Below are positions 5,201 to 42,381 of a stretch of 64,000 nt of DNA, piece after piece. Source of the stretch: Marinomonas sp. SBI8L (GTDB lineage: Bacteria; Pseudomonadota; Gammaproteobacteria; Pseudomonadales; Marinomonadaceae); the NCBI RefSeq assembly GCF_001624705.1, contig NZ_JSEO01000019.1, positions 20,765-84,764 on the forward strand, written 5' to 3'. A program made the translations under genes and the position numbers. A model generated the notes under the pieces. That model was given only the letters and a program-made list of their open reading frames with translations. It was not told the origin of the DNA and made no database searches. Every line of letters begins with the position of its first letter. Position 1 is the first letter of the stretch.

Positions 5201-6415
5201 CCATATGGTGCTTTGTTGACTGTTAAAGACGGCGAAGAAGTATCTGCAGGCCAAGTTATTGCTAACTGGGATCCGCATACGCACCCAATTGTCTCTGAGA
5301 TGCAAGGTCGTCTAGAGTTCAGTGGTATGGAAGAAGGTCAAACAATTCGTCGTCAATCAGATGAAATGACTGGTTTGACAACAATTGAAATTCTTGAGAT
5401 CAAAGATCGTCCAGCTGCAGGTAAGGACTTACGTCCTATGATTGCTGTAGTTGATGAAAACGGTGAGCCAGTACTTGTTCCAGGTACGGATTCTCCAGTG
5501 CAGTACATGTTGCCTGAAAAAGCACTATTGAGCTTGGATCATGGTGCCAGCATTCAGTCTGGTGAGGTACTTGCACGTATTCCTCAAGAAACAATTGGTA
5601 ACAAGGATATTACCGGTGGTCTACCTCGTGTTGCTGACTTATTTGAAGCGCGTCGCCCTAAAGATCCAGCTGTTATGGCTGAGGCTTCTGGTGTGGTTAG
5701 CTTTGGTAAAGAGACGAAAGGTAAGATTCGTTTGGTAATCAATGCTCAAGATGGATCTGATCCAATTGAGACCTTGATTCCTAAGTGGCGTCAAATCAAC
5801 ATCTTTGATGGTGAAGAAGTGGAGCGTGGTGAAATTATTGCCGATGGTCCATTAAACCCACATGATATCTTACGCTTGAAGGGTGTGGCGGCATTGGCTG
5901 AATACATAACTAGTGAGATTCAAGAGGTTTACCGTCTACAGGGTGTTGTGATCAACGATAAACACATTGAGGTTATCGTTCGTCAAATGCTACGCAAGGT
6001 AGATATTTCTGAATCAGGTGATACTAACTTGATTCAAGGTGATCAGGTTGAGTTAACGCAAGTACTTGAAGCAAATGAAGAAGCGGAAGCTGAACAGAAA
6101 TTCATTGCTAAATACGAGCGTGTTTTGCTTGGTATCACTAAAGCCTCTTTGGCAACTGAGTCATTTATCTCTGCAGCATCCTTCCAGGAAACAACTCGCG
6201 TGTTAACAGAAGGTGCGGTAACAGGTAAGAAAGACCATTTGCGTGGCTTGAAAGAGAACGTTGTAGTAGGTCGTCTGATTCCAGCCGGAACAGGTTTGGC
6301 TTACCACAGTGAGCGCAAGAATAAGAAAGAGCTTGCGCGCGCAGAGAAAGAAGGTTCAGCAACAATTAGTGCTTCTGATGTAGAAGAAGCGCTAAGTGCG
6401 GCACTAAAAGACTAA
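2213..6415 (+). CDS. rpoC: RNA polymerase beta' subunit
   Basis: Largest subunit of RNA polymerase, 1400 residues (E. coli 1407). The chosen start gives [11 protein letters not shown], matching the family N-terminus; an in-frame upstream ATG/GTG-type start at 2177 would add 12 non-conserved residues and lies inside the spacer hairpin. The N-terminal zinc site has C70, C72, C85 and C88. The catalytic magnesium motif NADFDGD sits at 458-464, the same numbering as E. coli. The second zinc site is [11 protein letters not shown] around bases 4870-4900. Trigger-loop and bridge-helix segments ([23 protein letters not shown]) are intact. It is the last gene of the rpo cluster; a hairpin and a probable new promoter follow before rpsL. 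Confidence 0.98.
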
Positions 6416-6433
6416 AATTCGATGCAAATTGGG

Positions 6434-6463
6434 TAGGGAGGCGATTTTTTAGTCGCCTCCCTA
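6434..6463 (+). terminator. Hairpin after rpoC, possible terminator or attenuator
   Basis: An 11-bp perfect stem (TAGGGAGGCGA / TCGCCTCCCTA) with a T-rich 8-base loop lies 19 bases after the rpoC stop. The bases after the stem are TTGACTGTTTT, so the T-tract is imperfect and termination may be partial. It marks the boundary between the rpoBC and str transcription units. Confidence 0.5.
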
Positions 6464-6925
<462 letters not shown>

Positions 6926-29392: not shown

Positions 29393-29512
29393 ACTAGGGC
29401 ACATATTTGGCCTTGGCCTAAAACGAATTTAGAAAAAACGAATTTGGCGTCCATTTGCTGCAAACAGCAAGTGCATAAAACGCTAAACGAATAGGAAAAC
29501 TTGGAGAACGTC

Positions 29513-30289
29513 ATGGCACGTGGAATAAATAAAGTCATCTTGATCGGTAATGCGGGCAATGATGCAGAAGTACGTTATATGCCTTCTGGTGGCGCGGTTG
29601 CAAATGTCAGCCTAGCAACAACAGAAAGCTGGAGAGACAAGACAACAGGTCAAATGCAAGAGCGTACTGAGTGGCACCGTGTTTCTTTTATGGACCGTGG
29701 TAACTTCCGCCTAGGTCAAATTGCCGGTGACTACATCAAGAAAGGTTCTAAAGTGTATGTTGAAGGTTCTCTTCGTACACGTGAGTGGGAAAAAGACGGC
29801 ATTAAACGTTACACCACAGAAATCATTGCTAACGAAATGCAATTGCTAGATGGTCGTGGCGATCAAGCTGGCCAAGGTGGTTTTGACAACAATGCACAAA
29901 ACGGTGGTTTTGGTGGTCAACAGCAGCAAGCGCCAGCAATGAACAATATGGGGAACCAAGGTGGCTTCCAGCAAGCACCTCAGCAACAAGCGCCTCAACA
30001 AAATAATGGTTTCCAACAGCGTGCACCGCAACAACAAGCACCGCAGCAAAACCAACAGCCTCAAAATAATGGTTTCCAACAGCAAGCGCCGCAGCAGCAA
30101 CAAGCTCAGCCGCAATCTTTTGGTAGCTGGGGCCAGCAACCACAACAAGCTGCTCCACAGCAAAATCAACAGCAAGCTGCGCCTCAACAGCGTGCGCCAC
30201 AGCAACAGGCTCAACAACGCCCAGCGGCACCAGCACCTAAGCCTGCAGCACCTAGCTTTGATGATTTTGATGATGACATTCCTTTCTAA
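29513..30289 (+). CDS. ssb: Single-stranded DNA-binding protein with an unusually long Gln/Pro linker
   Basis: Binds ssDNA during replication, repair and recombination and recruits partners through its C-terminal tip. The OB-fold is residues 1-112 (start [20 protein letters not shown], with [18 protein letters not shown] and EWHRVSF). The last residues DFDDDIPF are the standard partner-binding tip. In between lie about 130 residues of low complexity, rich in Gln, Pro and Ala with repeated QQAPQQ and NNGFQQ units, giving 258 residues against 178 in E. coli. The ATG at 29513 follows TTGGAGAACGTC; a TTG upstream is rejected. A terminator follows the gene. Confidence 0.95.
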
Positions 30290-30318
30290 GGAACAGATTG
30301 TCTAGATTGAAATACAGA

Positions 30319-30348
30319 AAGCCTCGCTAAATTAGCGGGGCTTTTTTT
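30319..30348 (+). terminator. Intrinsic terminator of ssb
   Basis: AAGCCTCGCT / AGCGGGGCTT (ten pairs, one T-G wobble) with loop AAATT, followed by T-run to 30348. It insulates ssb from the sirtuin gene downstream. Confidence 0.88.
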
Positions 30349-30469
30349 GGGCTGTAAATAGAGCTGAAATCTTACCCGTAAAGTACGGTCGCTATTATTC
30401 AATGTAGAGTGTTTTTTATAGTATGATTTAAGTTATTGAAATAGTTAGATAATTGATTGGCAGGGACTT

Positions 30470-33400
30470 ATGCAATTTGTTAAAAACGGACCAAATATAC
30501 CTGATGAACTCCTTCAGGCGCATGAAGATGGCAATGTCATTTTCTTCTGTGGAGCTGGTATATCTTATCCTGCCGATTTACCAGGCTTTAAGGGTCTAGT
30601 GGATAAAATATATCTTGAGGTTGGTGAAACTAAGAATGAAATAGAATCAAATGTTTATGACCGTGAGCAATTTGATAGCACTCTTGATCTTCTTGAAAGA
30701 AGAGTTGTTGGTGAAAGGCAGACTGTTAGAAAAGCGTTATTAAAAAGCTTAAAACCAAACTTCAGAAAAAAGCATGCTTTACGCACCCATGAGTCTCTTT
30801 TGAAGCTTTCTTGCGACAATGAAGGAATGACTCGTTTAGTTACAACAAACTTTGACAGGATTTTTGAGAAGGTTATAAAGCAGCGGAAGCTTGATATAAA
30901 CTCTTTTGTTGCACCATTACTGCCAATACCTAAAAAAAGTCGTTGGGATGGATTGGTCTACTTACATGGTTTGATTCCAGACAAAGAAAACTACTCAGAT
31001 TTAAATCGCCTAGTTTTCACTAGTGGTGACTTTGGGCTGGCTTATTTAACAGAACGTTGGGCATCGCGCTTTGTCTCTGAATTATTCCGAAGTTATGTTA
31101 TTTGTTTTGTTGGATATAGCATTAATGATCCGGTACTTAGATATATGATGGATGCACTAGCTGCAGACCGTATGCTAGGAGAAGATCTACCAGATGCTTA
31201 TGCTTTTGCTGATTTTAAAGCTGGTAATGAGGAAGTCGCAGCGAATGAGTGGAAGGCTAAGAATGTAATTCCGATTCTCTACGAAGATCATTCAAAATTA
31301 CATGACACCTTAGATAGTTGGGCTCAAACATACTCAGAAGGATCTCTAGGTAAAGAAAGTATTGTAGCAAAGTATGCAATGTTCCCACCTACAGCGAGTA
31401 CTCAAAATGATGACTTTGCAGGAAGGGTTATCTGGGCATTATCTGAGCCAAATGGCTTACCTGTTAAACGATTCTCTGAGCTAAATCCCTGCCCTCACAT
31501 AGATTGGCTTGAGATAATTTCGGAGAGACGCTACTCAAAAAAAGATTTACCTCGACTTGGCATTTCTACATTAACAGAGGGTAATTCAGACTTAAGTTTT
31601 AGTTTAGTTGAAAGGCCTTCTCTTCCTAGCGAAAGTATATACGACTCTATTCGTTCTTTGCATTATGAAAACAGTAATTGGGACCGTGTAATGTCTCAAA
31701 TTTGCAACTGGCTTTTAAGGCATCTAAACGACCCGAGACTTGTATATTGGTTAATAAAATATAGAGGCGAGCTTACTAGTAGTTTTAAAAGTACCCTTGA
31801 AAGAAAACTGTCTGCGTTAAACAAGCTTGATGATAATGAAAAGCTGATTTTACAAGAGAATTCACCGAACGCTATCCCTGATGATGAAATGTTGTCTCTT
31901 TGGAAAATGCTACTAGCAGGCAGAATCCATACAGCATCAAATGATTCTCGATTGTATAACTGGGTAGGCCGAGTAAAGCAACATGGCTTTAATACGCTCT
32001 TAAAGCTAGAGCTGAGAGAGTTATTAGCTCCAAAAATATCCATTAAGAAGCCATATAGCTTGAGTACACGACGTTATGATTGGGAATTAAAGCTAACATA
32101 TAATTTAAAACACGATATAGAGAAAATAACCTCATTAATAGGGCCTGAAAATTTAGCAGAACTCTTTGATGATTTTCAAGTGCTGCTTGTTGACGCATTA
32201 GATTTGGCCCAAGAGATGGGGGAGGCTGATAACCTCATAGATAATTCCCACTGGGACTTGCCATCAATTTCTCATCATATGCAAAATCGAGGTTATCATG
32301 ACTGGATAATTTTAATCGAGCTGTTGAGGGACTCTTGGTTAGAGGTTTTGTCTAAAAATATTTTATTAGCTAGGGAAAAAGCTATTCTATGGTTTCAAAA
32401 ACCTTACCCTGTTTTTAAAAGGCTTGCTTTATTTGCTGCAAGTTATGATCAGGTTATTGCTCCAAAACAATGGTGTGATTGGCTATGTCAAAATGATGCT
32501 TGGTGGTTGTGGGATACACAAACTCAGCGTGAAACTATGAGGCTACTGGTGCTTCAAGGTGAAAATTTAGATCAACACAGTCAATCCTGTTTAGAGGAGG
32601 CTATTCTATCAGGTCTCCCTCGTCGGATGTTCCGAGAAGATTTGGAAGTAAGCCAATTTCAAGAAATGAATGAACATACCATATGGTTACATTTAGCTAA
32701 GCTTGATAGTGGTGGAGTAAATCTTTCAGACAACACAGAAGCATACTTCAAAGAGTTATCATCTAATAATCCAAAATGGGAGCTTGATAATAAATATCAA
32801 AAAGATGAGTTTTCCCATTGGATGAGTGGTTCGGGTGATCCTGATTATGAGGATAAGCGAACATACGAATTGGCACCAACAAAGAAGTTAGATTTAATGG
32901 AATGGCTGATGGAGAGTAAGTCTAATTATTCGTTCGAACATGGAGATAATTGGAGAGATGTTTGCATAGAAGATATGAGTTTAGCCTTCAACTCTCTTTA
33001 TGATTTATTTAATGGAAAAAAATTTCCTGAACATCGATGGAATGTTGCGTTTTCAGCTTGGTGTAGCGATAAAACAATAGCTGATTCGTGGATATTAGCT
33101 GCTCCAATTATAGTCACATTCTCTGATGACCAGTTTGTAACATGTATTCATGGTATTGGCCGGTGGCTTCAAGCTGTATCTAAAAATGTAACATTACATG
33201 CTGAAAAATTTCTTCTTTTAGTAGAGCGAGTATTAACGATTTACCCTGAAAGTGAGAATACAGGAAATGTTGCAACTGTTTCTTCTGCTATTAATCATCC
33301 TGTTGGCATATCAACAGAAGCATTATTTAATTACTGGTTTACTACTGGGTTGCAGGATAATACAAAAATCGATGGAAACTTTTCTCAAATTTTCCATCTT

Positions 33401-34207
33401 ATTTGTATTGATAAAACCAATGCTTTTGATCAGGGAAAGGTAATTGTAGCGTCTCGGGCTATGGCTTTGTATCGTGTTGACCCAATTTGGACGAAAGATA
33501 ATTTAGTCCCTTTATTTGACTGGGACAAGAATGAGAGGGTGGCTAGTATAGTTTGGAACGGCTTTTTATGGGGAGCGAGAATATACCTCCCGCTAATGGA
33601 AGAGTTGAAAGATTCATTTATTGATACAGCAATGAGGCTCCCTTTTTTAGAAGGTGGTGAAAGGAGGTATATAGAATTTTTAATTCATATTTCTTTAGAG
33701 AAAAATGCGATTTTAAACGATAAAGAAGTTCATCTTGTATTTAATAAACTATCGCTTAAGTCCTTAGAAAATGCTGCAAATATTCTAAATCAAATTCTTA
33801 GTGCTTCAGAAAGAAAAGAAGAGCTTTGGAAGAATAGAGTACTCCCTCTATGGAAAAGTGCTTGGCCAAAATCGAAAGATAAGCTGACACCTAAGATCTC
33901 AGACTCATTGATAAGATTTTGTTTAGATTCTGGCGATGAGTTTCCAAATGCCTTTTTGCTGTTGAAAGATTATATTGGAAAAGTTAAACAGCCGGATTAT
34001 GTTATTAGCTTAATGGCCCAGTCGAAAACATCGGAAAAATTTCCAATAGAAACCCTCGAGTTATTAGATCTTATTGTTGATCAAAATAGCAATAGAGCTC
34101 CTTATTCTCTAACAGAAGCTTTAGAGGTATTAGGGAAGTCTAATGGGTTTTGTAATAAATCTCAGTTTAAAAAGTTAATAGAGTTTAACAGACGCTTTGG
34201 ATGCTAG
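30470..34207 (+). CDS. dsr1: SIR2-domain antiphage defence protein, Dsr1-like
   Basis: 1245-residue protein with an N-terminal sirtuin-type NADase domain (about 1-290) and a long C-terminal, mostly helical region without a recognised motif. SIR2 landmarks are FFCGAGISYPADLPGFKGL (25-43), TTNFD (125-129, N127), YLHG (164-167, H166) and FVGYSINDP (213-221). N127 and H166 match the catalytic Asn and His of NAD-cleaving defence sirtuins. No Walker A is present, which argues against the Avs5 (SIR2-STAND) architecture. The length and single-gene layout resemble the defence-associated sirtuins Dsr1/Dsr2, in which phage sensing by the large C-terminal part triggers NAD+ depletion. The gene is AT-rich with many AGA and ATA codons unlike its neighbours, consistent with transfer. 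The start follows GGCAGGGACTT. Family assignment is from memory of sequence resemblance. Confidence 0.75.
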   Translation: MQFVKNGPNIPDELLQAHEDGNVIFFCGAGISYPADLPGFKGLVDKIYLEVGETKNEIESNVYDREQFDSTLDLLERRVVGERQTVRKALLKSLKPNFRKKHALRTHESLLKLSCDNEGMTRLVTTNFDRIFEKVIKQRKLDINSFVAPLLPIPKKSRWDGLVYLHGLIPDKENYSDLNRLVFTSGDFGLAYLTERWASRFVSELFRSYVICFVGYSINDPVLRYMMDALAADRMLGEDLPDAYAFADFKAGNEEVAANEWKAKNVIPILYEDHSKLHDTLDSWAQTYSEGSLGKESIVAKYAMFPPTASTQNDDFAGRVIWALSEPNGLPVKRFSELNPCPHIDWLEIISERRYSKKDLPRLGISTLTEGNSDLSFSLVERPSLPSESIYDSIRSLHYENSNWDRVMSQICNWLLRHLNDPRLVYWLIKYRGELTSSFKSTLERKLSALNKLDDNEKLILQENSPNAIPDDEMLSLWKMLLAGRIHTASNDSRLYNWVGRVKQHGFNTLLKLELRELLAPKISIKKPYSLSTRRYDWELKLTYNLKHDIEKITSLIGPENLAELFDDFQVLLVDALDLAQEMGEADNLIDNSHWDLPSISHHMQNRGYHDWIILIELLRDSWLEVLSKNILLAREKAILWFQKPYPVFKRLALFAASYDQVIAPKQWCDWLCQNDAWWLWDTQTQRETMRLLVLQGENLDQHSQSCLEEAILSGLPRRMFREDLEVSQFQEMNEHTIWLHLAKLDSGGVNLSDNTEAYFKELSSNNPKWELDNKYQKDEFSHWMSGSGDPDYEDKRTYELAPTKKLDLMEWLMESKSNYSFEHGDNWRDVCIEDMSLAFNSLYDLFNGKKFPEHRWNVAFSAWCSDKTIADSWILAAPIIVTFSDDQFVTCIHGIGRWLQAVSKNVTLHAEKFLLLVERVLTIYPESENTGNVATVSSAINHPVGISTEALFNYWFTTGLQDNTKIDGNFSQIFHLICIDKTNAFDQGKVIVASRAMALYRVDPIWTKDNLVPLFDWDKNERVASIVWNGFLWGARIYLPLMEELKDSFIDTAMRLPFLEGGERRYIEFLIHISLEKNAILNDKEVHLVFNKLSLKSLENAANILNQILSASERKEELWKNRVLPLWKSAWPKSKDKLTPKISDSLIRFCLDSGDEFPNAFLLLKDYIGKVKQPDYVISLMAQSKTSEKFPIETLELLDLIVDQNSNRAPYSLTEALEVLGKSNGFCNKSQFKKLIEFNRRFGC

Positions 34208-34213
34208 GGTATT

Positions 34214-34278
34214 ATCTCTTAAAGTAGATCTGGATTGATATTTTAAGAGATCTCAGATAAATTGTCTGAGATCTCTTA
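34214..34278 (+). other. Mutually exclusive hairpins downstream of the sirtuin gene
   Basis: TAAGAGATCTCAGA (34244-34257) pairs perfectly with TCTGAGATCTCTTA (34265-34278), a 14-bp stem with a 7-base loop. The left arm can instead pair with an upstream segment: ATCTCTTAAA (34214-34223) is the exact complement of TTTAAGAGAT (34242-34251). The two stems cannot form together. No T-run follows, so it is not a standard terminator. It lies 37 to 71 bases after the sirtuin stop. Confidence 0.55.
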
Positions 34279-34421
34279 TGTTAGAGTGATTTCCAAAAAA
34301 GAGAAATGTGATTTTGTTTTGGAGTTATCGTCTCTCCGTTTTTATAGCTCCTCTATAATTAGAAAAAATAACGCATAAATCTTAGTGAATGAATTTAAAA
34401 GTAAGAAAGGGTTAATGGAAT

Positions 34422-34925
34422 ATGATCTTTTTGAAGAGTAAAGTTAAAAATATAGCTTTCTTTTTAGGACTTATTACTGCAGTGATAACTTTGTTAGATT
34501 ATACAAATGAATTTTACTTTTGGGCTTCAGGTAATGATTCTGTTTTTACTGAAGATGATAAGTGGGTTGGAAGTTACAAGTGTATCGGCTCAGAAAGGAT
34601 TCACCTTGAATTGTATACAAAAGAAGTGGTAGAGAAAAATGGCGAATTTAATTTAACGATGGAAGCGGCATTTTCTGAAAAGGATCGATTTGATGGAGCC
34701 ACACTTAGACACGGAAGTTTTGAAGTTTCAGGTAAATATTTTCCAAGAAGTGGTAATGTTGATTTAAAACCTTTAGGACCAGATGATTTTATTGTAAAAC
34801 CTAAGAGTTCGTATACAACAATTGGCTTTATAGGGAAGGTAACTTCGAATAAAATTAATGGGAGTGTTTGGAATCCTGATGGGTATCAAGGATGTAAGGA
34901 CTTTAGAGTAAACAAGTTAATTTAA
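34422..34925 (+). CDS. Small membrane-anchored protein of unknown function
   Basis: I do not recognise a family. The 167-residue product has a lysine-containing N-terminus and one hydrophobic helix (about 11-26, IAFFLGLITAVITLL), so it is probably anchored in the inner membrane by an uncleaved helix. The remainder (45-167) reads as a beta-rich soluble domain with two cysteines, C54 in WVGSYKCIG and C158 in GYQGCKDF, positioned to form a disulfide if periplasmic. The composition is AT-rich like the sirtuin gene 214 bases upstream, on the same strand. A weak ribosome-binding site (AAAGGG) is 11 bases away. It may be a partner or passenger of the defence gene; this is inference. Confidence 0.6.
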   Translation: MIFLKSKVKNIAFFLGLITAVITLLDYTNEFYFWASGNDSVFTEDDKWVGSYKCIGSERIHLELYTKEVVEKNGEFNLTMEAAFSEKDRFDGATLRHGSFEVSGKYFPRSGNVDLKPLGPDDFIVKPKSSYTTIGFIGKVTSNKINGSVWNPDGYQGCKDFRVNKLI

Positions 34926-34974
34926 ACTTCTCATTTACTTTTTTACCTGAGTGAAACTTGATAACTGTGATTGT

Positions 34975-35133
34975 TCATTTGTCATAATAAAACCAGTTAT
35001 TAATATCTTCAATGATGCTTGAATATTGACCGTTAAATACTTTCAACTTTGCTTTGTCAAAGTCCTGTAGGTATTGAACCAATATCCGACAGGGTATTGT
35101 TTTTTTTATTACTAATGAGGAATTAAGAGCAAG
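34975..35133 (-). pseudogene. Decayed 3' fragment of a GntR/FCD regulator
   Basis: Read on the minus strand the open frame contains VQYLQDFDKAKLKVFNG, which aligns with SYLQDFTKAQLEAFKSTN, the C-terminus of the complete GntR regulator 600 bases to the right. Nucleotide resemblance is visible too (CAAAGTCCTGTAGGTA versus TAAAGTCCTGCAGGTA on the plus strand). The frame has no start codon and is cut by a stop at 35134-35136 next to the thioesterase gene. It continues about 20 residues past the intact protein's end. It is best read as the remnant of a second, related regulator or of a duplication. Confidence 0.6.
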
Positions 35134-35138
35134 CTAAG

Positions 35139-35603
35139 CTAATCAGGCTTTCTCTCCACCGCCACATAAGCCCCTTTCAGTGTCATAGCGACCTGATCAC
35201 CTTGTTTGACCTCGATTTCTAGGTTGAGGCGACCACGACCTTTGTTGTCGAGGAAAGACATAAATGTGGTTAAGTCTGTTTCATCCGGAAGGCAAGTCTC
35301 GGCATAAAAATCATCTGTGATAGGGGCGAGATAGTTGATCTGGCTATCTCGGATCATAACATCACAATCTCGACCTTGTTCACGTAGGTAGAGAGTAACC
35401 AGCGCCCAACCACATAAGGTTGCAACCGTAGAAAGAGAACCACCAAAGCCCGTACCTTTATCATTCACATTAGGTGTTAATGCCGCTGGCATTTGCAGTG
35501 ACTGACCATCATAAACAAGATCACCAAAGCCCATATGATTAATCAGCGGAATTTGTCCTTTTAGCCAAATAAGAAACTCGTCGGCGGTTTGCTGCTGGGT
35601 CAT
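35139..35603 (-). CDS. Thioesterase domain protein, YiiD C-terminal type (hotdog fold)
   Basis: 154-residue protein resembling the putative thioesterase domain found at the C-terminus of E. coli YiiD. The core NVNDKGTGFGGSLSTVATLCGWA provides the hotdog helix, and VMIRDSQINYLAPITDDFYAE is the following strand region. No partner acyltransferase domain is fused here, unlike YiiD. It would hydrolyse an acyl-CoA or similar thioester; the substrate is unknown. It is the last gene of the minus-strand run, 56 bases after the GntR regulator, and may belong to that catabolic operon or simply lie next to it. Confidence 0.7.
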   Translation of the reverse strand: MTQQQTADEFLIWLKGQIPLINHMGFGDLVYDGQSLQMPAALTPNVNDKGTGFGGSLSTVATLCGWALVTLYLREQGRDCDVMIRDSQINYLAPITDDFYAETCLPDETDLTTFMSFLDNKGRGRLNLEIEVKQGDQVAMTLKGAYVAVERKPD

Positions 35604-35659
35604 ATTCGTCTCCGTGAATTATCTTGGTGAAATTGAGTTTGTAGGCTAAGTGCTATCAA

Positions 35660-36319
35660 TTAATTGGTGGACTTGAAGGCTTCTAACTGAGCTTTAGTAA
35701 AGTCCTGCAGGTAGCTAATTAATTCTGCCGATGCATTCAAGGCCGTGTCTTTATCCGAGAGAAGTAGGGCGTTCATCTGTCTGATATAAAGGTCTGTACA
35801 GTAGGCTTGGTCCTTCGCTGTGGCGTAGTAGCACCAAAAGCGTCGTGAGAGCGCTTGGGTGGTTTTGATCGAGGCAAGAATAAATTCATTTTTAGAAGAT
35901 TGAGCCAAGATATGGTGCATTTGGCGTAAGACATCCATAAAACCATTTCTGTCTTCAGCATCGAGCTGGGTGAGGGTCATGATGACTTTTTCCACTTCCC
36001 TCTTGTCAGCTTCGTTCATTCTATCAATGGCTTTATCAATACATAGACTTTCAATTAGAGATCTTGGCTCCAGCAGTTTGAGCATAGTCATAGGATTAAG
36101 CTCAGGAATGACAACGCCAGCACGGGATAAGCGGACTAGGTTTTCATTGGCCAGCTTCATCAAGGCTTCTCGTACCGGTGTACGACCTAAGTTGAGAAAC
36201 TCACTGATTTCGGTTTCTGTCATAACAGAGCCCGGTTCAATGAGGCAATCGACAATTGCTTCTTCTAACTTCTCTGCTGCAACTTCTGCTTTCGTTCTTT
36301 TCTCTAACGGGTTGTGCAT
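35660..36319 (-). CDS. GntR-family regulator, FCD (FadR) subfamily
   Basis: 219-residue transcription factor. The N-terminal winged helix-turn-helix (about 10-75) includes IEPGSVMTETEISEFLNLGR followed by TPVREALMKLANENLVRL, the GntR pattern. The C-terminal helical FCD effector domain (about 85-215) is less conserved; MHHILAQSSKN and FWCYYATAKD lie where metal and ligand residues usually sit. Its start overlaps the end of the enolase-family gene by 16 bases, so it is co-transcribed with the operon and is the likely local regulator. Two palindromes upstream of the first operon gene are candidate operators. FCD regulators typically sense organic acids or acyl compounds. Confidence 0.85.
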   Translation of the reverse strand: MHNPLEKRTKAEVAAEKLEEAIVDCLIEPGSVMTETEISEFLNLGRTPVREALMKLANENLVRLSRAGVVIPELNPMTMLKLLEPRSLIESLCIDKAIDRMNEADKREVEKVIMTLTQLDAEDRNGFMDVLRQMHHILAQSSKNEFILASIKTTQALSRRFWCYYATAKDQAYCTDLYIRQMNALLLSDKDTALNASAELISYLQDFTKAQLEAFKSTN

Positions 36320-37443
36320 GATTGAATAATATCCCAGTTTAGCTTAATGCCAAGGCCATCTTGTTCTTTATCTATTGTAACCATGCCATCCTGATCAATG
36401 CTATAAGGATTTTTGATTAGGTGTTGGCGCAACAGAGATGGGCTGGTGGAATATTCAAGAGGCTCTTGTTTGTTCTGGGTTGATAAAAAGTGGCTGTTTA
36501 CTGCAATTGTGATGTCTGTGTTATAGGCATGAGGCACGATACGTTTGTTCTGTTTATTCATTAAACCTCTTAGCTTGATGACTTCGCTGACTCCTCCGAA
36601 TAGGGTGATATCCGGTTGAGCGATATCAAATGACTGTTTTTCTAAATAGGGTAGAAACTCTTTGCAGGTTGTCATGCCAAGGTCACCGACGCCTATCGGA
36701 ATATGAGTTAGCTGCTTTAAGGCAATGTGATCTTCAAGGTTTTCTAAGTTAAATGGCGCTTCTATCCATTTAAAATCTAATGCCTCTAAGGTACTAAGGA
36801 AGGGTTTTAATTGTGCTAACGAATTGAATTCTAGTGCCACATCTAGCATTAATTCTATATCTCGACCAACTAGGTGTCTCAGATAATTAAGGTTGGATCG
36901 CGTTTTATCAAAGTTGCTCCACCAAGGCTCAACACAAATTTTAATTCGCTTCATACCTTTTTCTAACAAGGGCATGATTTGAGCTTTGATGCCGTCTTCG
37001 GTATCCGCTAAAGGGTAAATGGTGGCATAGGCAGGTAATCTTTTATGCTTACGTTCACCAAAGTAATGATGTAATGGGACTTTATTGAGGCGTGAAAATA
37101 GGTCCCAAATAGCAATATCAAGCGCACTAATAGCGTGAATAACAGCGCCATTACGTCCATGCCAATAACTACCTTGATACATTTTTTGCCAAAGACGTTT
37201 TGGGTCATCTAGGGCTTCGCCTATTAACAAAGCGGCAAGACCTTGAGATAGATGGTTATAGCTTGGCGCTTCAATGAGAGCTTTAATTATTTGCGGAGGC
37301 GAGTCGCTTTCACCTATGCCATACATGCCATTGTCTGCTGTAACAACAACCACAACATTTTGGTAGCTACCCTCAAAACGAACAAAGTCCGCTTGAGGGT
37401 CTTGTAAGCAATAAACGTCAATTTTCTCGATACGATTTAGCAT
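36304..37443 (-). CDS. Enolase-superfamily enzyme, mandelate racemase subgroup, atypical KxC motif
   Basis: 379-residue protein with the N-terminal capping domain and TIM-barrel of the mandelate racemase/muconate lactonising group. Metal ligands by position are D201 (MLDVA), E228 (WIEAP) and D254 (GVGDLG, where most members have Glu). The His-Asp dyad of the MR subgroup is present: D278 in QPDIT and H305 in VPHAY. The usual KxK catalytic motif at the end of strand 2 reads K168-I-C170, so the second lysine is a cysteine. Enzymes of this group abstract an alpha proton from a carboxylate, giving dehydration or racemisation. The substrate is unknown. It lies 9 bases downstream of the next enolase-family gene. 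Confidence 0.8.
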   Translation of the reverse strand: MLNRIEKIDVYCLQDPQADFVRFEGSYQNVVVVVTADNGMYGIGESDSPPQIIKALIEAPSYNHLSQGLAALLIGEALDDPKRLWQKMYQGSYWHGRNGAVIHAISALDIAIWDLFSRLNKVPLHHYFGERKHKRLPAYATIYPLADTEDGIKAQIMPLLEKGMKRIKICVEPWWSNFDKTRSNLNYLRHLVGRDIELMLDVALEFNSLAQLKPFLSTLEALDFKWIEAPFNLENLEDHIALKQLTHIPIGVGDLGMTTCKEFLPYLEKQSFDIAQPDITLFGGVSEVIKLRGLMNKQNKRIVPHAYNTDITIAVNSHFLSTQNKQEPLEYSTSPSLLRQHLIKNPYSIDQDGMVTIDKEQDGLGIKLNWDIIQSCTTR

Positions 37444-37452
37444 GAACTTAAC

Positions 37453-38577
37453 CTAAAGATTGAACTCTTTGCGTTGATAAATGAAAGGCTCGATCTGCTC
37501 CCAATCTAACTCTACTCCTAACCCTGCTTTAGTTGGGGCTTGGATATAACCATCTGTATCAGGTCTAAATACTTGTTTAGCACCAAACTCATATTTCTCA
37601 TAAGGGGCAGCTTGTTCAAAATAATGGCAGTTATTGTGGGCTAGCATAATATGAAGGTTAGCCGCTTGAGTTAGGGTATAACCCCATGACTGCACTTCCG
37701 CTATTCGGTTTAGCTCTTTGGTAAATTGCATCACTTTATTGGCATTAGTAAAGCCGCCAATACTAGTAACATCAAAACGGCTTCTATCCCAGCAACCTTC
37801 TTTCAAACCATACTCAATAAGTGAAGGGTGAGGGAGGCTATTACCGCCGCTGATAACATCTAAATTAAGACGTGAAACCAATACCTGATAGCCAGTGAAG
37901 TCTGAATCAGGCAGGGGCTCTTCGAAGAATTCCCACTCGTATTCATCAAGTAGTTGCCCCATTTTAATGGCTTCTTCTAGGCTGTAATTGGCGTCAACAT
38001 CAAGGCTCCAACCAATGTTTTTACTGCCAAACTCAGCTTGTAGCGCTTCAACTAGCTCTCTATCGGTTTGATAAACACAAGGGGGATGAATTTTAATGGC
38101 GTTAAAGCCTTGTGCTAGCATCTCGTGGCAATAATCTAGGTATGCCTCTATGGTGCTGAATACAGGGCTAGACGCATAAGCACGGACTTTTTCTTGTTCT
38201 GCTCCTAGCATCTTATAGATAGGCAAACCTAATGATTTGGCTTTTGCATCATGTAATGCAATATCAAATAAGGAGCTGGAAATATGCTTGAGTGGTACAT
38301 ACTTAGCTTGCATATCTTGATGGATTTCAGGAATTTCATCTAGATGACGGCCCAGAATAAAAGGTGACATCAAGGACGCACTATGAAATGCGGTTTGGTC
38401 GAACTCATGCTCAGTGTAAGTCGTAAGGCCAGCAATACCTTCTAGACCATTATCAAAAGTAAGACGAGTTACTATCATTGCTTCACTCATAGGCCCTAGA
38501 AAAGAAGACCAACTGATCTTCTTTCCATTTGGGCCTATCGCGAAAAGCTCAATTTTTTTCACAATAGGCGCAGACAT
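37453..38577 (-). CDS. Second enolase-superfamily enzyme with divergent active site
   Basis: 374-residue protein of the same superfamily but only distantly similar to its neighbour. The strand-2 motif is K162-I-H164 (GFNAIKIH). Metal positions are D195 (LDVDANY), E219 (FFEEPLP) and N246 (SGGNSLP, usually Glu). D269 is present (RFDVTSIGG), but the usual dyad histidine after strand 7 is absent: the segment reads VQSWGY. It may act on a related carboxylate by a different acid-base pair, or bind one without full catalysis. It starts within two bases of the BCCT transporter stop, and so is tightly co-translated. Confidence 0.75.
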   Translation of the reverse strand: MSAPIVKKIELFAIGPNGKKISWSSFLGPMSEAMIVTRLTFDNGLEGIAGLTTYTEHEFDQTAFHSASLMSPFILGRHLDEIPEIHQDMQAKYVPLKHISSSLFDIALHDAKAKSLGLPIYKMLGAEQEKVRAYASSPVFSTIEAYLDYCHEMLAQGFNAIKIHPPCVYQTDRELVEALQAEFGSKNIGWSLDVDANYSLEEAIKMGQLLDEYEWEFFEEPLPDSDFTGYQVLVSRLNLDVISGGNSLPHPSLIEYGLKEGCWDRSRFDVTSIGGFTNANKVMQFTKELNRIAEVQSWGYTLTQAANLHIMLAHNNCHYFEQAAPYEKYEFGAKQVFRPDTDGYIQAPTKAGLGVELDWEQIEPFIYQRKEFNL

Positions 38578-38578
38578 A

Positions 38579-40132
38579 TTAGGCGTTATCCTCTTTGATA
38601 TATTTGCTGGTGGTGATCATCATAAGTACTAAGATTCCCATAACAGGTAAACCAACCAATACGGATGCAGTTTGCATACTTTTTAGCCCACCTAGGAACA
38701 TTAAAGTCAGTGGTAATACGGCGATAGCAAAACACCAGAATAGTCGATTAGAGCGTTCTGGCTCTTGACCTTCACCTAACTCTTTTGTTGTTGCACATGC
38801 CATCACGTAAGCAGCTGAGTCAAAGGTTGTCGCAAGTAGTACTATGCCAGAAGCCGCTAGAGCAATAAGGACTAAGCCACTCGCTGGTAAGGTTTTAAAG
38901 AGTTCGATAATGGCAACAGCAACGCCTTTTGTATTGACCAGTTCAGACATAGGAAGTATGCCTTCCATTTGTAGATTAATACCGTATCCGCCTAGAACTA
39001 TGTAGAAAAGGGCACAACCAGAAGAGCCATAAACTAGCATACCAAAGATAACTTCACGGATAGTACGACCACGAGAAATACGAGTAACAAACATACCCAT
39101 GAATGGTGCGTACGCTACCCACCAGGCCCAATAGAAAACAGTCCAAGCTTGAGGGAAACCACTCTTCTCGACACTGTCAGTCCAAGTGCTCATCTTGATA
39201 TAGTTTTCAGCCATATAGCCTAAAGAATCCATGCCTAAACCTAGGATGAATTTTGTTGGCCCTACGACAAATACATAAGCAACAATGGCAAGCGTTAATA
39301 GCGTTGAGAAAGTACTAAGGCGTTTAATGCCTTGAGAAAGACCAAGACCGCTACTTACAGAGAAAATTGCAGTACAAATAAGAATGACAGAGATGTCCAT
39401 ATAAGTGCCGCCGGCTACTCCTAAGACTTCTGCTAAAGCATTGCTTATCATAGGGGTGCCTAGGCCAAGAGAGGTGGCTGCTGCACCTAATACCCCAAAG
39501 ATGAAGGTGTAATTGATAATGGTACCAAGAGGCCCGTCGACAAGGTCACCTAATGCGCCACGGCATGATTCACTCACCTTATAGATGTGTTTTTGACGCA
39601 CATAATAAATATATGAGATAGCAATTGTCGGCACACAGTAAAGTGCCCATGCAGTCGGGCCCCAATGGAATATGCCGTAGCCTTGCGCCACTGTGTACAT
39701 TTCAGTGGTTTTAGCTTCGATACCAAAAGGAGTCCAAGCATAATGGTAACCCCATTCAGTGCCGCCCCAAAGTAAAAGACCCGAAGCAATACCAGCAAGA
39801 AAAACCATGGCTCCCCATGCACCTTTCGAAAACTCCGCTTCTGCATTTTTATCTGCACTTAGCTTGATATTGCCATGGCGAGAAAAAGCCAATGCCAATA
39901 AGAAAATAAGTGCACCAAGGCCTATGCCGAGAAAAGCAAAATCAAAGCTGTTTGTCATCCATTTAAAAAGCGCATTGATGGTTGTTTTAGCAGACTCTGG
40001 GAAGAGAATAATAGGTAATGCCATAGCAACAATGATCATTAAACTAATGACCTGCATTCTGCGATCGGTTTCAACGCTCGCAGTTTGAGTTTGGGTGTTT
40101 GATGCCCCGAGGTTTTGAGAAGACACGCTCAT
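38579..40132 (-). CDS. BCCT-family transporter (betaine/carnitine/choline type)
   Basis: 517-residue inner-membrane transporter with about twelve helices. The family signature around helix 8 is present: FYWAWWVAYAPFMGMFVTRISRGRTIREV. The glycine-rich helix 3 segment is GIASGLLLWGGTEWGYHYAW, which is related to but not identical with the choline/betaine carriers. BCCT proteins take up quaternary ammonium or related compounds, using sodium or proton gradients or by exchange (CaiT). Its place between an FAD oxidoreductase and two enolase-family enzymes suggests it imports the operon's substrate rather than serving osmoprotection. The soluble N- and C-terminal extensions are short, with no long regulatory tail like that of BetP. 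Confidence 0.9.
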   Translation of the reverse strand: MSVSSQNLGASNTQTQTASVETDRRMQVISLMIIVAMALPIILFPESAKTTINALFKWMTNSFDFAFLGIGLGALIFLLALAFSRHGNIKLSADKNAEAEFSKGAWGAMVFLAGIASGLLLWGGTEWGYHYAWTPFGIEAKTTEMYTVAQGYGIFHWGPTAWALYCVPTIAISYIYYVRQKHIYKVSESCRGALGDLVDGPLGTIINYTFIFGVLGAAATSLGLGTPMISNALAEVLGVAGGTYMDISVILICTAIFSVSSGLGLSQGIKRLSTFSTLLTLAIVAYVFVVGPTKFILGLGMDSLGYMAENYIKMSTWTDSVEKSGFPQAWTVFYWAWWVAYAPFMGMFVTRISRGRTIREVIFGMLVYGSSGCALFYIVLGGYGINLQMEGILPMSELVNTKGVAVAIIELFKTLPASGLVLIALAASGIVLLATTFDSAAYVMACATTKELGEGQEPERSNRLFWCFAIAVLPLTLMFLGGLKSMQTASVLVGLPVMGILVLMMITTSKYIKEDNA

Positions 40133-40188
40133 AATTTTTCCAACATATTGTTATTATTTAGTGGTTACCCTGACTGGCTTGGAAAGCG

Positions 40189-41517
40189 TTAAGCTTGCTG
40201 CATCAGTTGGGCGATTCGGTTACCGTCGATCGCTTGAAAATCAAGCGCTTCCATAATCGATATATGTGCAGCAAGGGCTGCTGCTTTTCCATATTCAAAG
40301 CATTGGGCTGTGACACGACAGCTTGCTAGTGCTTCGTGTTCACTGCTTAAACAGCGGCCCGCAACAATGAGGTTTTTGCCTTCTTTAGGCACTAAGGTAT
40401 GAAAGGGAACTTCATAGTAGTCATCCACTAGCCATTCAGTTCTTGGCTTGTCGCCATAATGCAATTCGATCGGCCAAGCGCTTTTCACCATGGCATCTGA
40501 GAATTTTGCGCCTGAGACAACATCATGATTGGTTAAGGTTTTAACACCATCGATGGAGCGAGTTTGTCGAACACCCACTTCGGTGGCGTAATCAATAAAG
40601 TAGCTATTTTCACAGCCAGGCAAATTTGCCTTCATAAAATTGAAAAATGCCTCAGCTTGATAAATTGAGAATTGCTCGGCTTCTGTATGATCGACAGGGT
40701 CTGTAACATCCAAAGCGCGTTTGTCAAAACCTGTGATTTTCGTGGCATTAACGAGAAGCTCACCTGGGTTCACCGTAGGGAATAGCCAAACTTTTTTACG
40801 CAGTAGGTCATCTTCTGCTTCAAGCATGCTAACGACTTTTGGGGGGGAAATAGTGTTCTCACCCCAATAGTTTAGGTAAGTCTCCATATCCACATTACCG
40901 ACTTTAAACATCATTGTTGGGTTTTGAATGATGCCGTTTTGACCCTTACGAGTTTTTTGCCCCAACTTGAATACCAAGTCTGCATCACCACTGGCATCGA
41001 TAAAGCGTTTCGCTGATACAGAGGTAAAGCCAGACTTTGTATGAAGTACTAGGCCGGTAACTGTGTCTTTTTCAGAAATTACATCAACAACTTGAGTGTG
41101 ATAAAGGACAGAAATGTTTGGTTGGCGAAGCATGTCAGTAGCGACTTTTTTGTATTTAGCGCAATCATGAGTAGCAACCCAGGTTTTTCCGTATATTTGA
41201 GGCTCAGTTAAGCCACCTGCTGCATGCAAGGCATCACAAAAACGCCCAGCGAAACCAAATACAAGTTGTTCTGCTTGTACCTCACTTGGATTCTCAACAG
41301 ACTTATATAAACCACAGACTGTACCTGATAAGCCTGCGACAGCTGCACCACCACAAAAGCCTAAGCGCTCTATGATAAGCACTTTGAGATCCAGTTCGGC
41401 AGCGGTGACTGCTGCTGCGATACCAGCAGGGCCTGCGCCAGTGACAATAACGTCATAGTCACCAAAGCAAGGTAAGTCGGTTTTATAGTCAGCAGGGAGG
41501 TTGAGGCAATAGCTCAT
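40189..41517 (-). CDS. FAD-dependent oxidoreductase, first gene of the catabolic operon
   Basis: 442-residue flavoprotein. The N-terminal Rossmann motif is YDVIVTGAGPAGIAAAVTAA (GxGxxG at 27-32), followed by IIERLGFCGGAAVAG. A second FAD-contacting motif is RFIDASGDADL, and the C-terminal one is KNLIVAGRCLSSEHEA. This is the FAD_oxidored class (PF12831-like), which carries out oxidation or reduction of small molecules; the substrate is not evident. The ATG at 41517 is preferred over a TTG four codons upstream. There is no signal peptide, so it is probably cytoplasmic. The BCCT gene follows 56 bases later. Confidence 0.8.
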   Translation of the reverse strand: MSYCLNLPADYKTDLPCFGDYDVIVTGAGPAGIAAAVTAAELDLKVLIIERLGFCGGAAVAGLSGTVCGLYKSVENPSEVQAEQLVFGFAGRFCDALHAAGGLTEPQIYGKTWVATHDCAKYKKVATDMLRQPNISVLYHTQVVDVISEKDTVTGLVLHTKSGFTSVSAKRFIDASGDADLVFKLGQKTRKGQNGIIQNPTMMFKVGNVDMETYLNYWGENTISPPKVVSMLEAEDDLLRKKVWLFPTVNPGELLVNATKITGFDKRALDVTDPVDHTEAEQFSIYQAEAFFNFMKANLPGCENSYFIDYATEVGVRQTRSIDGVKTLTNHDVVSGAKFSDAMVKSAWPIELHYGDKPRTEWLVDDYYEVPFHTLVPKEGKNLIVAGRCLSSEHEALASCRVTAQCFEYGKAAALAAHISIMEALDFQAIDGNRIAQLMQQA

Positions 41518-41547
41518 AGTTAGCACCAAGTATGTTTATATTTGTAG

Positions 41548-41566
41548 AATATATTTAAAATATATT
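41548..41566. promoter_or_regulatory. AT-rich palindrome upstream of the catabolic operon
   Basis: AATATATTT-A-AAATATATT is a perfect 9-bp inverted repeat with one central base, 31 bases before the oxidoreductase start codon. Its position suits an operator overlapping the promoter. The GntR-family product of the same operon is the natural candidate to bind; this is inference, and AT-rich palindromes also arise by chance. Confidence 0.4.
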
Positions 41567-41707
41567 TTAACTCTTGCTGCTGTCAAGCACTGTTTTACGA
41601 CGGATTTAAATTTGCTTTCTTAATCAATTCGTTAGGTTTTAAAATAATTGCGTGAGCTTATACATCGTGTAAATTTCAAAAAAGCGCTACAATCCCGCTT
41701 CTATCTG

Positions 41708-41729
41708 GCTTGTATACTTGTATATAAGC
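41708..41729. promoter_or_regulatory. Second palindrome, between the catabolic operon and smrA
   Basis: GCTTgTATACttGTATAtAAGC is an imperfect 22-bp palindrome (lower case marks unpaired positions). The GTATAC core resembles sites reported for FCD-type GntR regulators. It lies 79 bases before the smrA start and 191 bases from the operon start, and so could affect either. Confidence 0.35.
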
Positions 41730-41808
41730 ATTTGAGAAGGCAGTGTTTAAAGCGGCAATAGAGTTGAAACGAAAGCTCATTGTTATCTTGGTAGTGGTTG
41801 AGGTTGTT

Positions 41809-42381
41809 GTGGAAGAAGATGATTTTTCATTGTTCGCGGAAGAAGTTGCGGGCATAAAAAAAATGCGAAAAGATGAAGTCTATCTTGGCAAAAAAGGGCC
41901 GAGTGTAGATTTTAGTGAGCGCAAAAAAGCCGCCACAATCGCACCTGAAAAAGACAGCAATCACTTATCTGCAGACTATGTGGAAAAAGTCGACATCAAC
42001 GATGTACTTGCCTACAAAAAAGACGGTGTACAAGAAGGGGTTTTTAAACGCTTACGCCAAGGGAAATATGGCATAGAATCTCGTTTAGATTTACATAGAA
42101 GGACGGTAAATCAGGCCCGAGAATTGGTGTATCAATTTGTGGGTGACTGTATGCGCAATGATATTCGCGTTGCTATTTTGGTGCATGGTAAAGGCGATCG
42201 TACGCCAGATAATCAAGCAACGCTTAAGAGCTACATTAATAAGTGGCTTAAAGACATGGATGATGTCATGGCGTTTCATACCGCTCAACAATACCATGGT
42301 GGTTTAGGCGCCGTTTATATTCTTTTTAAGAAGAGCGAAAAAGCACGTCTTGAAGCCTGGGAGCAACATCAAAAGCGTTAA
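41809..42381 (+). CDS. smrA: Smr-domain protein, SmrA-like
   Basis: 190-residue protein with a C-terminal Smr domain. The core is SRLDLHRRTVNQARELVYQF, then ILVHGKGDRT and YHGGLGAVYILFKK, matching E. coli SmrA (187 residues), which has nicking endonuclease activity in vitro. The N-terminal EEDDFSLFAEEV also aligns with SmrA. The frame is open further upstream, but the first 22 codons are unlike the family; GTG at 41809, preceded by GAGG five bases away, is the likely start. It is a single gene between the catabolic operon (divergent) and the protease operon. Confidence 0.8.
   Translation: MEEDDFSLFAEEVAGIKKMRKDEVYLGKKGPSVDFSERKKAATIAPEKDSNHLSADYVEKVDINDVLAYKKDGVQEGVFKRLRQGKYGIESRLDLHRRTVNQARELVYQFVGDCMRNDIRVAILVHGKGDRTPDNQATLKSYINKWLKDMDDVMAFHTAQQYHGGLGAVYILFKKSEKARLEAWEQHQKR

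What the first reader, a model, noticed from the sequence alone, without database searches (positions are those of the whole stretch)
30470..34207. Large single-gene sirtuin defence protein in a core-genome junction
The sequence shows SIR2 catalytic residues N127 and H166, a GAGIS NAD-binding motif, no Walker A, and ~950 residues of unassigned helical C-terminus. Known defence-associated sirtuins (Dsr1, Dsr2) deplete NAD+ after phage sensing. The gene is AT-rich and flanked by ordinary housekeeping genes, so it is a compact horizontally acquired unit. What the C-terminal part senses is the open question.
Basis: partly seen in the sequence, partly recalled or inferred. Interest (0 to 1): 0.72.

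Follow-up and report, generated by a model that had tools for sequence, protein, structure and literature searches.

The report
Dsr1 phage-defence sirtuin in variable junction
This bacterium carries one large gene of a known anti-virus family (Dsr1), which probably senses an infecting phage and then destroys the cell's NAD+; it sits at a chromosomal spot where related bacteria carry different genes, some of them other defence genes.

Summary
One intact ORF at 30470-34207 (+, 1245 aa) has an N-terminal SIR2 domain (GAGIS at 28, TTNFD at 125, N127, H166), no Walker A, and about 950 further residues without a Pfam domain. It is not an unassigned sirtuin: it scores 1564.9 bits over nearly full length against NCBIfam NF041818 'Dsr1' (cut-off 1400) and 1438.6 bits against PADLOC Dsr1. 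N127 and H166 are invariant in 14 of 14 aligned Dsr1 proteins. It is a divergent Dsr1: the closest unsplit relative found is 46-47% identical. Acquisition looks horizontal: 0 of 24 congeners compared at the ssb-smrA junction have it there, and the only other Dsr1 found over the cut-off in the genus is 84% identical to a Shewanella plasmid protein. The junction is empty (85-166 bp) in 7 of 24 congeners and holds varied cargo in 17, including SIR2-HerA in one. Codon usage is not outlying, and the right-hand neighbours are an accessory catabolic cluster. Likely mechanism: phage sensing by the C-terminal part, NAD+ hydrolysis by SIR2. New member of a known kind.

The parts
30470..34207 (+). dsr1: anti-phage defence-associated sirtuin Dsr1, 1245 aa
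   Evidence: NF041818 1564.9 bits (cut-off 1400), PADLOC Dsr1 1438.6 bits, both nearly full length
30470..31339 (+). SIR2 (SIR2_2) domain, about residues 1-290, with GAGIS 28-32, TTNFD 125-129 (N127) and H166
   Evidence: the border at 290 is approximate
31340..34204 (+). C-terminal region, residues 291-1245, presumed sensor; no Pfam family above its cut-off, no PDB sequence relative; least conserved 30-residue segment at 438-467
   Evidence: sensor role inferred by analogy with DSR2
30316..30347 (+). hairpin with T run after ssb: probable ssb terminator that separates dsr1 from ssb
   Evidence: read from the sequence; folds at -19.5 kcal/mol, z -5.26; the pattern scan did not list it; a hairpin plus T-rich tail is also seen by eye in the 7 empty-site congeners
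34244..34278 (.). near-perfect inverted repeat 37 nt after the dsr1 stop, no T run; possible terminator
   Evidence: folds at -22.6 kcal/mol, z -6.01; not listed by the terminator scan
34422..34925 (+). orphan ORF, 167 aa, not a conserved Dsr1 partner
   Evidence: no family match; one congener relative at another place; no significant match at 16 Dsr1 or Dsr1-like loci
29501..30289 (+). ssb, left core border of the variable junction
   Evidence: Pfam SSB
35139..41529 (-). accessory catabolic cluster sharing the junction: YiiD-type thioesterase, GntR/FCD regulator, two enolase-superfamily proteins, BCCT transporter, FAD oxidoreductase
   Evidence: thioesterase found in 0 of 24 congeners; the other genes were not searched in congeners one by one
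41743..42381 (+). Smr-domain protein (smrA), right core border of the junction

Best explanation
The gene encodes a Dsr1 defence sirtuin. The N-terminal SIR2 domain is an NADase that is off in uninfected cells. The large C-terminal part binds something made by an infecting phage, most likely a virion structural protein by analogy with DSR2. Binding switches on NAD+ hydrolysis by the N127/H166 active site, and the loss of NAD+ stops phage production. Shown here: family membership by sequence, intact catalytic motifs, single-gene organisation, patchy distribution, location in a variable junction. Inferred from the family: NADase activity and defence. Inferred by analogy only: the kind of trigger, and that the C-terminal part is the sensor.
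For: NF041818 equivalog match above cut-off across 1-1240; PADLOC Dsr1. N127 and H166 invariant in 14 of 14 sequences; a DSR2 paper states that N133/H171 of DSR2 are conserved in DSR1 and that their mutation abolished NAD+ cleavage by DSR2 (passages of PMC11087589). Best solved-structure sequence match is the SIR2 NADase KomC, 5.5e-6. One plasmid relative lies beside type I restriction genes. In 6 of the 16 viral loci listed a 405-407-aa ORF precedes dsr1; the 3 of these tested by Pfam are phage integrases. The SIR2 part is more conserved (0.663) than the rest (0.476) in 17 sequences, as expected if sensing diversifies. Absent at this site in 24 of 24 congeners; SIR2-HerA occupies the same junction in one of them.
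Against: No activity was tested. The protein is a low-scoring member: 1564.9 bits against 2007-2116 for the three other intact proteins over the cut-off in the genomes searched. The Dsr1 profile meets the DSR2 chains of the PDB only at residues 17-52 with E 0.21-0.25, so carrying the tail-tube trigger over from DSR2 is weak. A review states that DSR1, unlike the others, inhibits phage without cell death, so simple abortive infection may be wrong. Faster change of the C-terminal part also fits plain lower constraint.
Confidence: 0.88

Rival explanations
1. A Dsr1 defence protein whose C-terminal part senses something other than a phage structural protein, for example a replication intermediate, invading DNA or a host process disturbed by phage. 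(This rivals only the trigger in the best explanation, so the two confidences overlap.)
For: The C-terminal region has no detectable sequence relation to DSR2, and a DSR2 paper notes limited homology of the C-terminal regions. Other SIR2 systems are triggered in other ways, for example ThsA by cyclic ADP-ribose molecules.
Against: No evidence for any particular alternative trigger; no nucleic-acid-binding or nucleotide-binding Pfam family outside SIR2.
Confidence: 0.4
2. A housekeeping or regulatory SIR2 deacylase unrelated to defence.
For: Weak match to the NAD-dependent protein deacylase model (12.3 bits, cut-off 221).
Against: Full-length Dsr1 match above the curated cut-off; patchy presence, full-length at 47% or more in 2 of 49 genus genomes; mobile-element carriage of relatives.
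Confidence: 0.03
3. A decayed or silent copy that no longer defends.
For: Probable ssb terminator upstream; no promoter-like site on the + strand in 30350-30469 by a simple sigma-70 scan.
Against: 1245 codons without interruption and intact catalytic motifs. The promoter scan found fewer sites (9) than its shuffles (mean 16.2) and does not cover other promoter types.
Confidence: 0.07
4. A two-gene system in which the 167-aa ORF at 34422-34925 is a regulator or partner of Dsr1.
For: Same strand, 214 bp downstream, in the same low-GC stretch.
Against: No significant match at 16 Dsr1 or Dsr1-like loci; one congener has a relative at an unrelated place; a strong hairpin lies between the genes.
Confidence: 0.05

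Closest known systems
Dsr1 (defence-associated sirtuin 1; NCBIfam NF041818, PADLOC Dsr1)
   Same: Full-length architecture, SIR2 motifs, single gene, relatives on plasmids and prophages
   Different: At most 46-47% identity overall to unsplit members found; C-terminal part 28-40% identical to them and to the split copies; chromosomal junction without a recognised integrase or transposase among the seven junction ORFs after dsr1
DSR2 (Bacillus subtilis; tail-tube-activated NADase, solved structures)
   Same: N-terminal SIR2 with the same catalytic Asn/His pair, large C-terminal part, single gene
   Different: 1004-1005-residue PDB chains; no sequence relation detected beyond residues 17-52 of SIR2 at E 0.21-0.25
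SIR2-HerA (in congener G013 at the same junction)
   Same: SIR2 effector gene directly after ssb
   Different: Two genes, the second a HerA ATPase; its SIR2 protein (385 aa) matches SIR2 models of PADLOC, not Dsr1
ThsA (Thoeris) and KomC
   Same: SIR2 domain match (PADLOC ThsA 1.8e-8; KomC 5.5e-6)
   Different: Short proteins (model 478, chain 264 residues) without the long C-terminal part; ThsA is triggered by cyclic ADP-ribose molecules

Membership tests
Dsr1 (NF041818) | Whole-protein score above the curated equivalog cut-off of 1400 bits | tested here: met
   1564.9 bits, residues 1-1240 on profile 1-1262 of 1263
Dsr1 (NF041818) | SIR2 NAD-binding and catalytic residues (GAGxS, TTNxD, catalytic His) | tested here: met
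   N127 and H166 invariant in 14 of 14; GAGIS at 28, TTNFD at 125
Dsr1 (NF041818) | Single gene without a conserved partner | tested here: met
   the downstream ORF was not found at 16 Dsr1 or Dsr1-like loci
Dsr1 (NF041818) | Phage protection through NAD+ depletion | not testable with these tools
   needs an experiment; family role from literature passages
DSR2 | Sequence relation to DSR2 over the C-terminal part | tested here: not met
   Dsr1 profile against PDB DSR2 chains: residues 17-52 only, E 0.21-0.25; no Dsr2-named model among the hits
DSR2 | Helical solenoid C-terminal domain | not tested
   structure prediction switched off
Avs5 (SIR2-STAND) | STAND ATPase with Walker A | tested here: not met
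   no GxxxxGK[ST]; no NTPase family in Pfam
Thoeris ThsA | Short SIR2-SLOG protein with a TIR-domain ThsB partner | tested here: not met
   1245 aa, only the SIR2 part matches ThsA models; no SLOG family; no TIR family among the seven ORFs from 34422 to 42381 or in uvrA, MFS, ssb

The most novel reading that the evidence does not exclude
This divergent protein represents a Dsr1 subclass with its own trigger, and Dsr1 is built as an effector half (about 1-460) joined to a sensor half (about 460-1245) by a hypervariable linker. In two prophages the gene is two overlapping ORFs that meet at this linker (L069: TAATG overlap; L009: ATGCTGA overlap), so a two-subunit Dsr1 may exist in nature.
Probability: 0.15. 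Interest if true: 0.5.

Novelty: new member of a known kind. Interest (0 to 1): 0.27.

Why it matters
It adds a divergent Dsr1 to a family that has a curated model but no sequence-matching full-length chain in the PDB copy and no named trigger in the papers I saw (listings and passages). A member at about 45% identity helps to find what the C-terminal part senses. The ssb-smrA junction is a handle for finding defence genes in this genus.

Tried and rejected
Phage records: no relative of the protein in the phage collection at E 1e-5. An Enterobacter plasmid hit matching only residues 633-1173 (H33) looked like a sensor fused to another effector; it is an ORF of 607 codons between two IS3-type transposase genes, so I read it as a fragment.

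Sensor swapping in the window protein: residues 1-440 and 465-1245 were compared separately with 22 whole proteins and with the pieces of two split copies; both parts fall off together, so there is no sign of a swap.

att-like direct repeats around dsr1 in 30200-35200: only two-copy matches of 14-20 nt at 80-87% identity, of the kind the tool calls often chance.

Partner gene at 34422-34925: rejected. Species name: not determined; Marinomonas is a guess from memory and is not relied on.

Literature: the original Dsr1/Dsr2 paper (doi 10.1038/s41564-022-01207-8, recalled) is not held. Searches (8 of 8 papers listed; 4 of 4; 30 of 57; 20 of 34) showed no title or abstract start about a Dsr1 trigger or structure; that is a statement about these listings only. 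The search was not followed up.

Not done: a PADLOC scan of all junction ORFs; 10 of the 106 ORFs of at least 80 aa listed were scanned, and 12 of 106 against Pfam. I chose them because they looked like defence candidates, so the hits say nothing about frequency. No test was made of whether defence genes are enriched at this junction. Of the 49 genus genomes, 24 besides the own one were compared at the junction; G046 has ssb and smrA on different contigs, G047 and G055 have them on one contig 8.0 and 6.1 kb apart, and none of these three was analysed further there.
Full report
What is there. The window holds an uninterrupted ORF at 30470-34207 on the + strand, 1245 aa, ATG start. A ribosome-binding-like AGGGA precedes it by my reading. 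A hairpin with a T run at 30316-30347, which folds at -19.5 kcal/mol (z -5.26), probably ends ssb transcription, though the pattern scan did not list it. The protein has GAGIS at 28-32, TTNFD at 125-129, N127, H166 and no Walker A. Pfam finds SIR2_2 at 123-269 and nothing else above cut-off.

What it is. NCBIfam names it Dsr1, an equivalog model: 1564.9 bits over residues 1-1240, cut-off 1400. PADLOC agrees: Dsr1, 1438.6 bits over 1-1242. PHROGs has a full-length family without a function name (phrog_15208, 1157.6 bits). In an alignment of 14 Dsr1 proteins N127 and H166 are invariant. So the 'unassigned C-terminus' is the Dsr1 C-terminus.

How divergent. Its overall identity to other unsplit Dsr1 proteins is 36-47%. 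Cut around the least conserved segment (438-467), residues 1-440 are 49-58% and residues 465-1245 28-40% identical to the Dsr1 members compared, the pieces of two split copies included. In a FastTree tree of the window protein and 22 others (18 Dsr1, 4 divergent long SIR2 proteins) it branches at the base of the Dsr1 clade next to the divergent group; the supports near this node are 0.807 and 0.947 and the root is a midpoint, so the exact place is uncertain. The three other intact proteins over the cut-off in the genomes searched score 2007-2116 bits.

Distribution. Among 49 genus genomes, own included, 8 have any match; 2 have Dsr1 over its full length at 47% identity or more, this one and G046. 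G046's copy exceeds the model cut-off (2116.4 bits); G047 (367.9 bits over 1-1261) and G055 (188.4 and 174.4 bits in two pieces) carry divergent long SIR2 proteins far below it; G002 and G013 match only by short SIR2 proteins (the model was run on these five, not on all 49). G046's copy is on another contig than its ssb and its smrA, near a phage-integrase-family ORF, and is 83.8% identical to the Shewanella plasmid Dsr1 but 46.3% to the window's: two separate acquisitions. In 274 genomes drawn from the class, 10 have any match and 3, own included, exceed the cut-off; 0 of 14 control genomes do. The genome-contig scan with short peptide patterns found 6 relatives among 17 stretches. Of 72,556 plasmid records 62 have a match, 12 with one place covering at least 80% of the query; the 9 best are 37-45% identical and 8 of these are annotated dsr1. 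The phage collection gave none. Viral contigs gave 21 loci, 17 of them at 43% or more in the best segment. In 6 of the 16 viral loci listed (L056, L057, L060, L061, L067, L068) a 405-407-aa ORF stands directly before the gene; the three tested (L056, L060, L067) are phage integrases.

The site. All 24 congeners of the first set have ssb and smrA on one contig. The stretch between them, measured from the ssb stop to the start of the smrA match, is 85-166 bp in 7 of 24 and 752-16,733 bp in 17 of 24. In the window it is about 11.4 kb: dsr1, a 167-aa orphan, and a catabolic cluster of thioesterase, GntR regulator, two enolase-superfamily proteins, BCCT transporter and FAD oxidoreductase. None of the 24 has dsr1 there. 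Of 106 ORFs in those intervals I scanned 10 from four genomes against PADLOC, chosen because they looked like defence candidates: G013 has SIR2 (130 bits) plus HerA (588 bits), G021 a KAP NTPase matching PDC-S20 (270 bits), G024 a protein matching HEC-09 (71.5 bits), and G012 two kinases whose matches to defence kinases look generic; the other 4 of the 10, among them G012's PP2C phosphatase, had no match. Much of the other cargo looks metabolic by my reading of the sequences. This is a variable junction with some defence cargo; enrichment was not tested.

Signs of foreign origin. GC is 0.369, the lowest of 33 window ORFs of at least 600 bp; third-position GC is the third lowest; the codon-usage distance is unremarkable, with 12 of 32 other ORFs further out.

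Mechanism. From published work: DSR proteins have an N-terminal SIR2 domain; in DSR2 phage tail-tube protein binds and switches on NAD+ hydrolysis, with the C-terminal domain as sensor (passages of PMC10973363). DSR2's C-terminal domain is a horseshoe-shaped helical solenoid, and its N133 and H171, conserved in DSR1, are needed for activity (passages of PMC11087589). A review says DSR1 inhibits phage without cell death (passages of PMC10952713). PMC12700824 places DSR1 in the SIR2_2 subfamily (passages), and PMC12931631 finds the GAGXS and TTNXD motifs shared by Avs5, DSR1, DSR2, ThsA and Argonaute-linked SIR2 domains (passages). I therefore hold NAD+ depletion on phage sensing as most likely (about 0.88 together with family membership), with the kind of trigger open (structural protein perhaps 0.5). 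The Dsr1 profile does not reach DSR2 chains beyond residues 17-52 (E 0.21-0.25), so the DSR2 trigger should not be carried over by homology.

A lead outside the window. In Photobacterium aquae (L009; identical over the stretch compared in L072) dsr1 lies between portal and head-protease genes of a prophage and is split into ORFs of 467 and 786 aa overlapping by ATGCTGA. In L069 it is split into 483 and 792 aa (from the ATG) with a TAATG overlap. Both breaks fall in or beside the segment least conserved in the family. In both, the frame upstream of the second start is open for some way, and in L069 it still resembles Dsr1 by my reading, which points to a recent frameshift; sequencing error and decay are not excluded. 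Another viral copy, L067, is broken elsewhere, so decay does occur. Two further viral scans, each with one piece, found no further copy split at this place by their tables, but the loci were not examined one by one.

Verdict. The finding is a new, divergent member of a known family at a variable chromosomal junction. Interest is modest.

Noticed in passing
L009:6001-9758 (same in L072 over the stretch compared), L069:8001-11830: Prophage dsr1 genes split into two overlapping ORFs at the hypervariable linker (about residue 440-465); in L009 the pair lies between portal and head-protease genes. Could be frameshift, sequencing error or a real two-gene form.
   Followed up: partly
window 30290-41742 and the ssb-smrA interval of 24 congeners (L013-L035, L037, L039-L045): Variable junction: 85-166 bp in 7 of 24, 0.75-16.7 kb cargo in 17 of 24; SIR2-HerA in G013, PDC-S20-like KAP NTPase in G021, HEC-09-like gene in G024, PP2C plus two kinases in G012.
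   Followed up: partly
G107:C1:20503-32957 (L084 holds the surroundings of one match): Two Dsr1-like genes close together on one contig, one with an internal TAG in its match.
   Followed up: no
window 34422-34925: 167-aa orphan with a hydrophobic stretch near its N-terminus by eye, no family match, GC about 0.32 in its surroundings; one 43% relative at another place in congener G013.
   Followed up: partly
L010 (Enterobacter plasmid), 4851-6671: Fragment of a Dsr1-like C-terminal part between two IS3-type transposase genes.
   Followed up: yes
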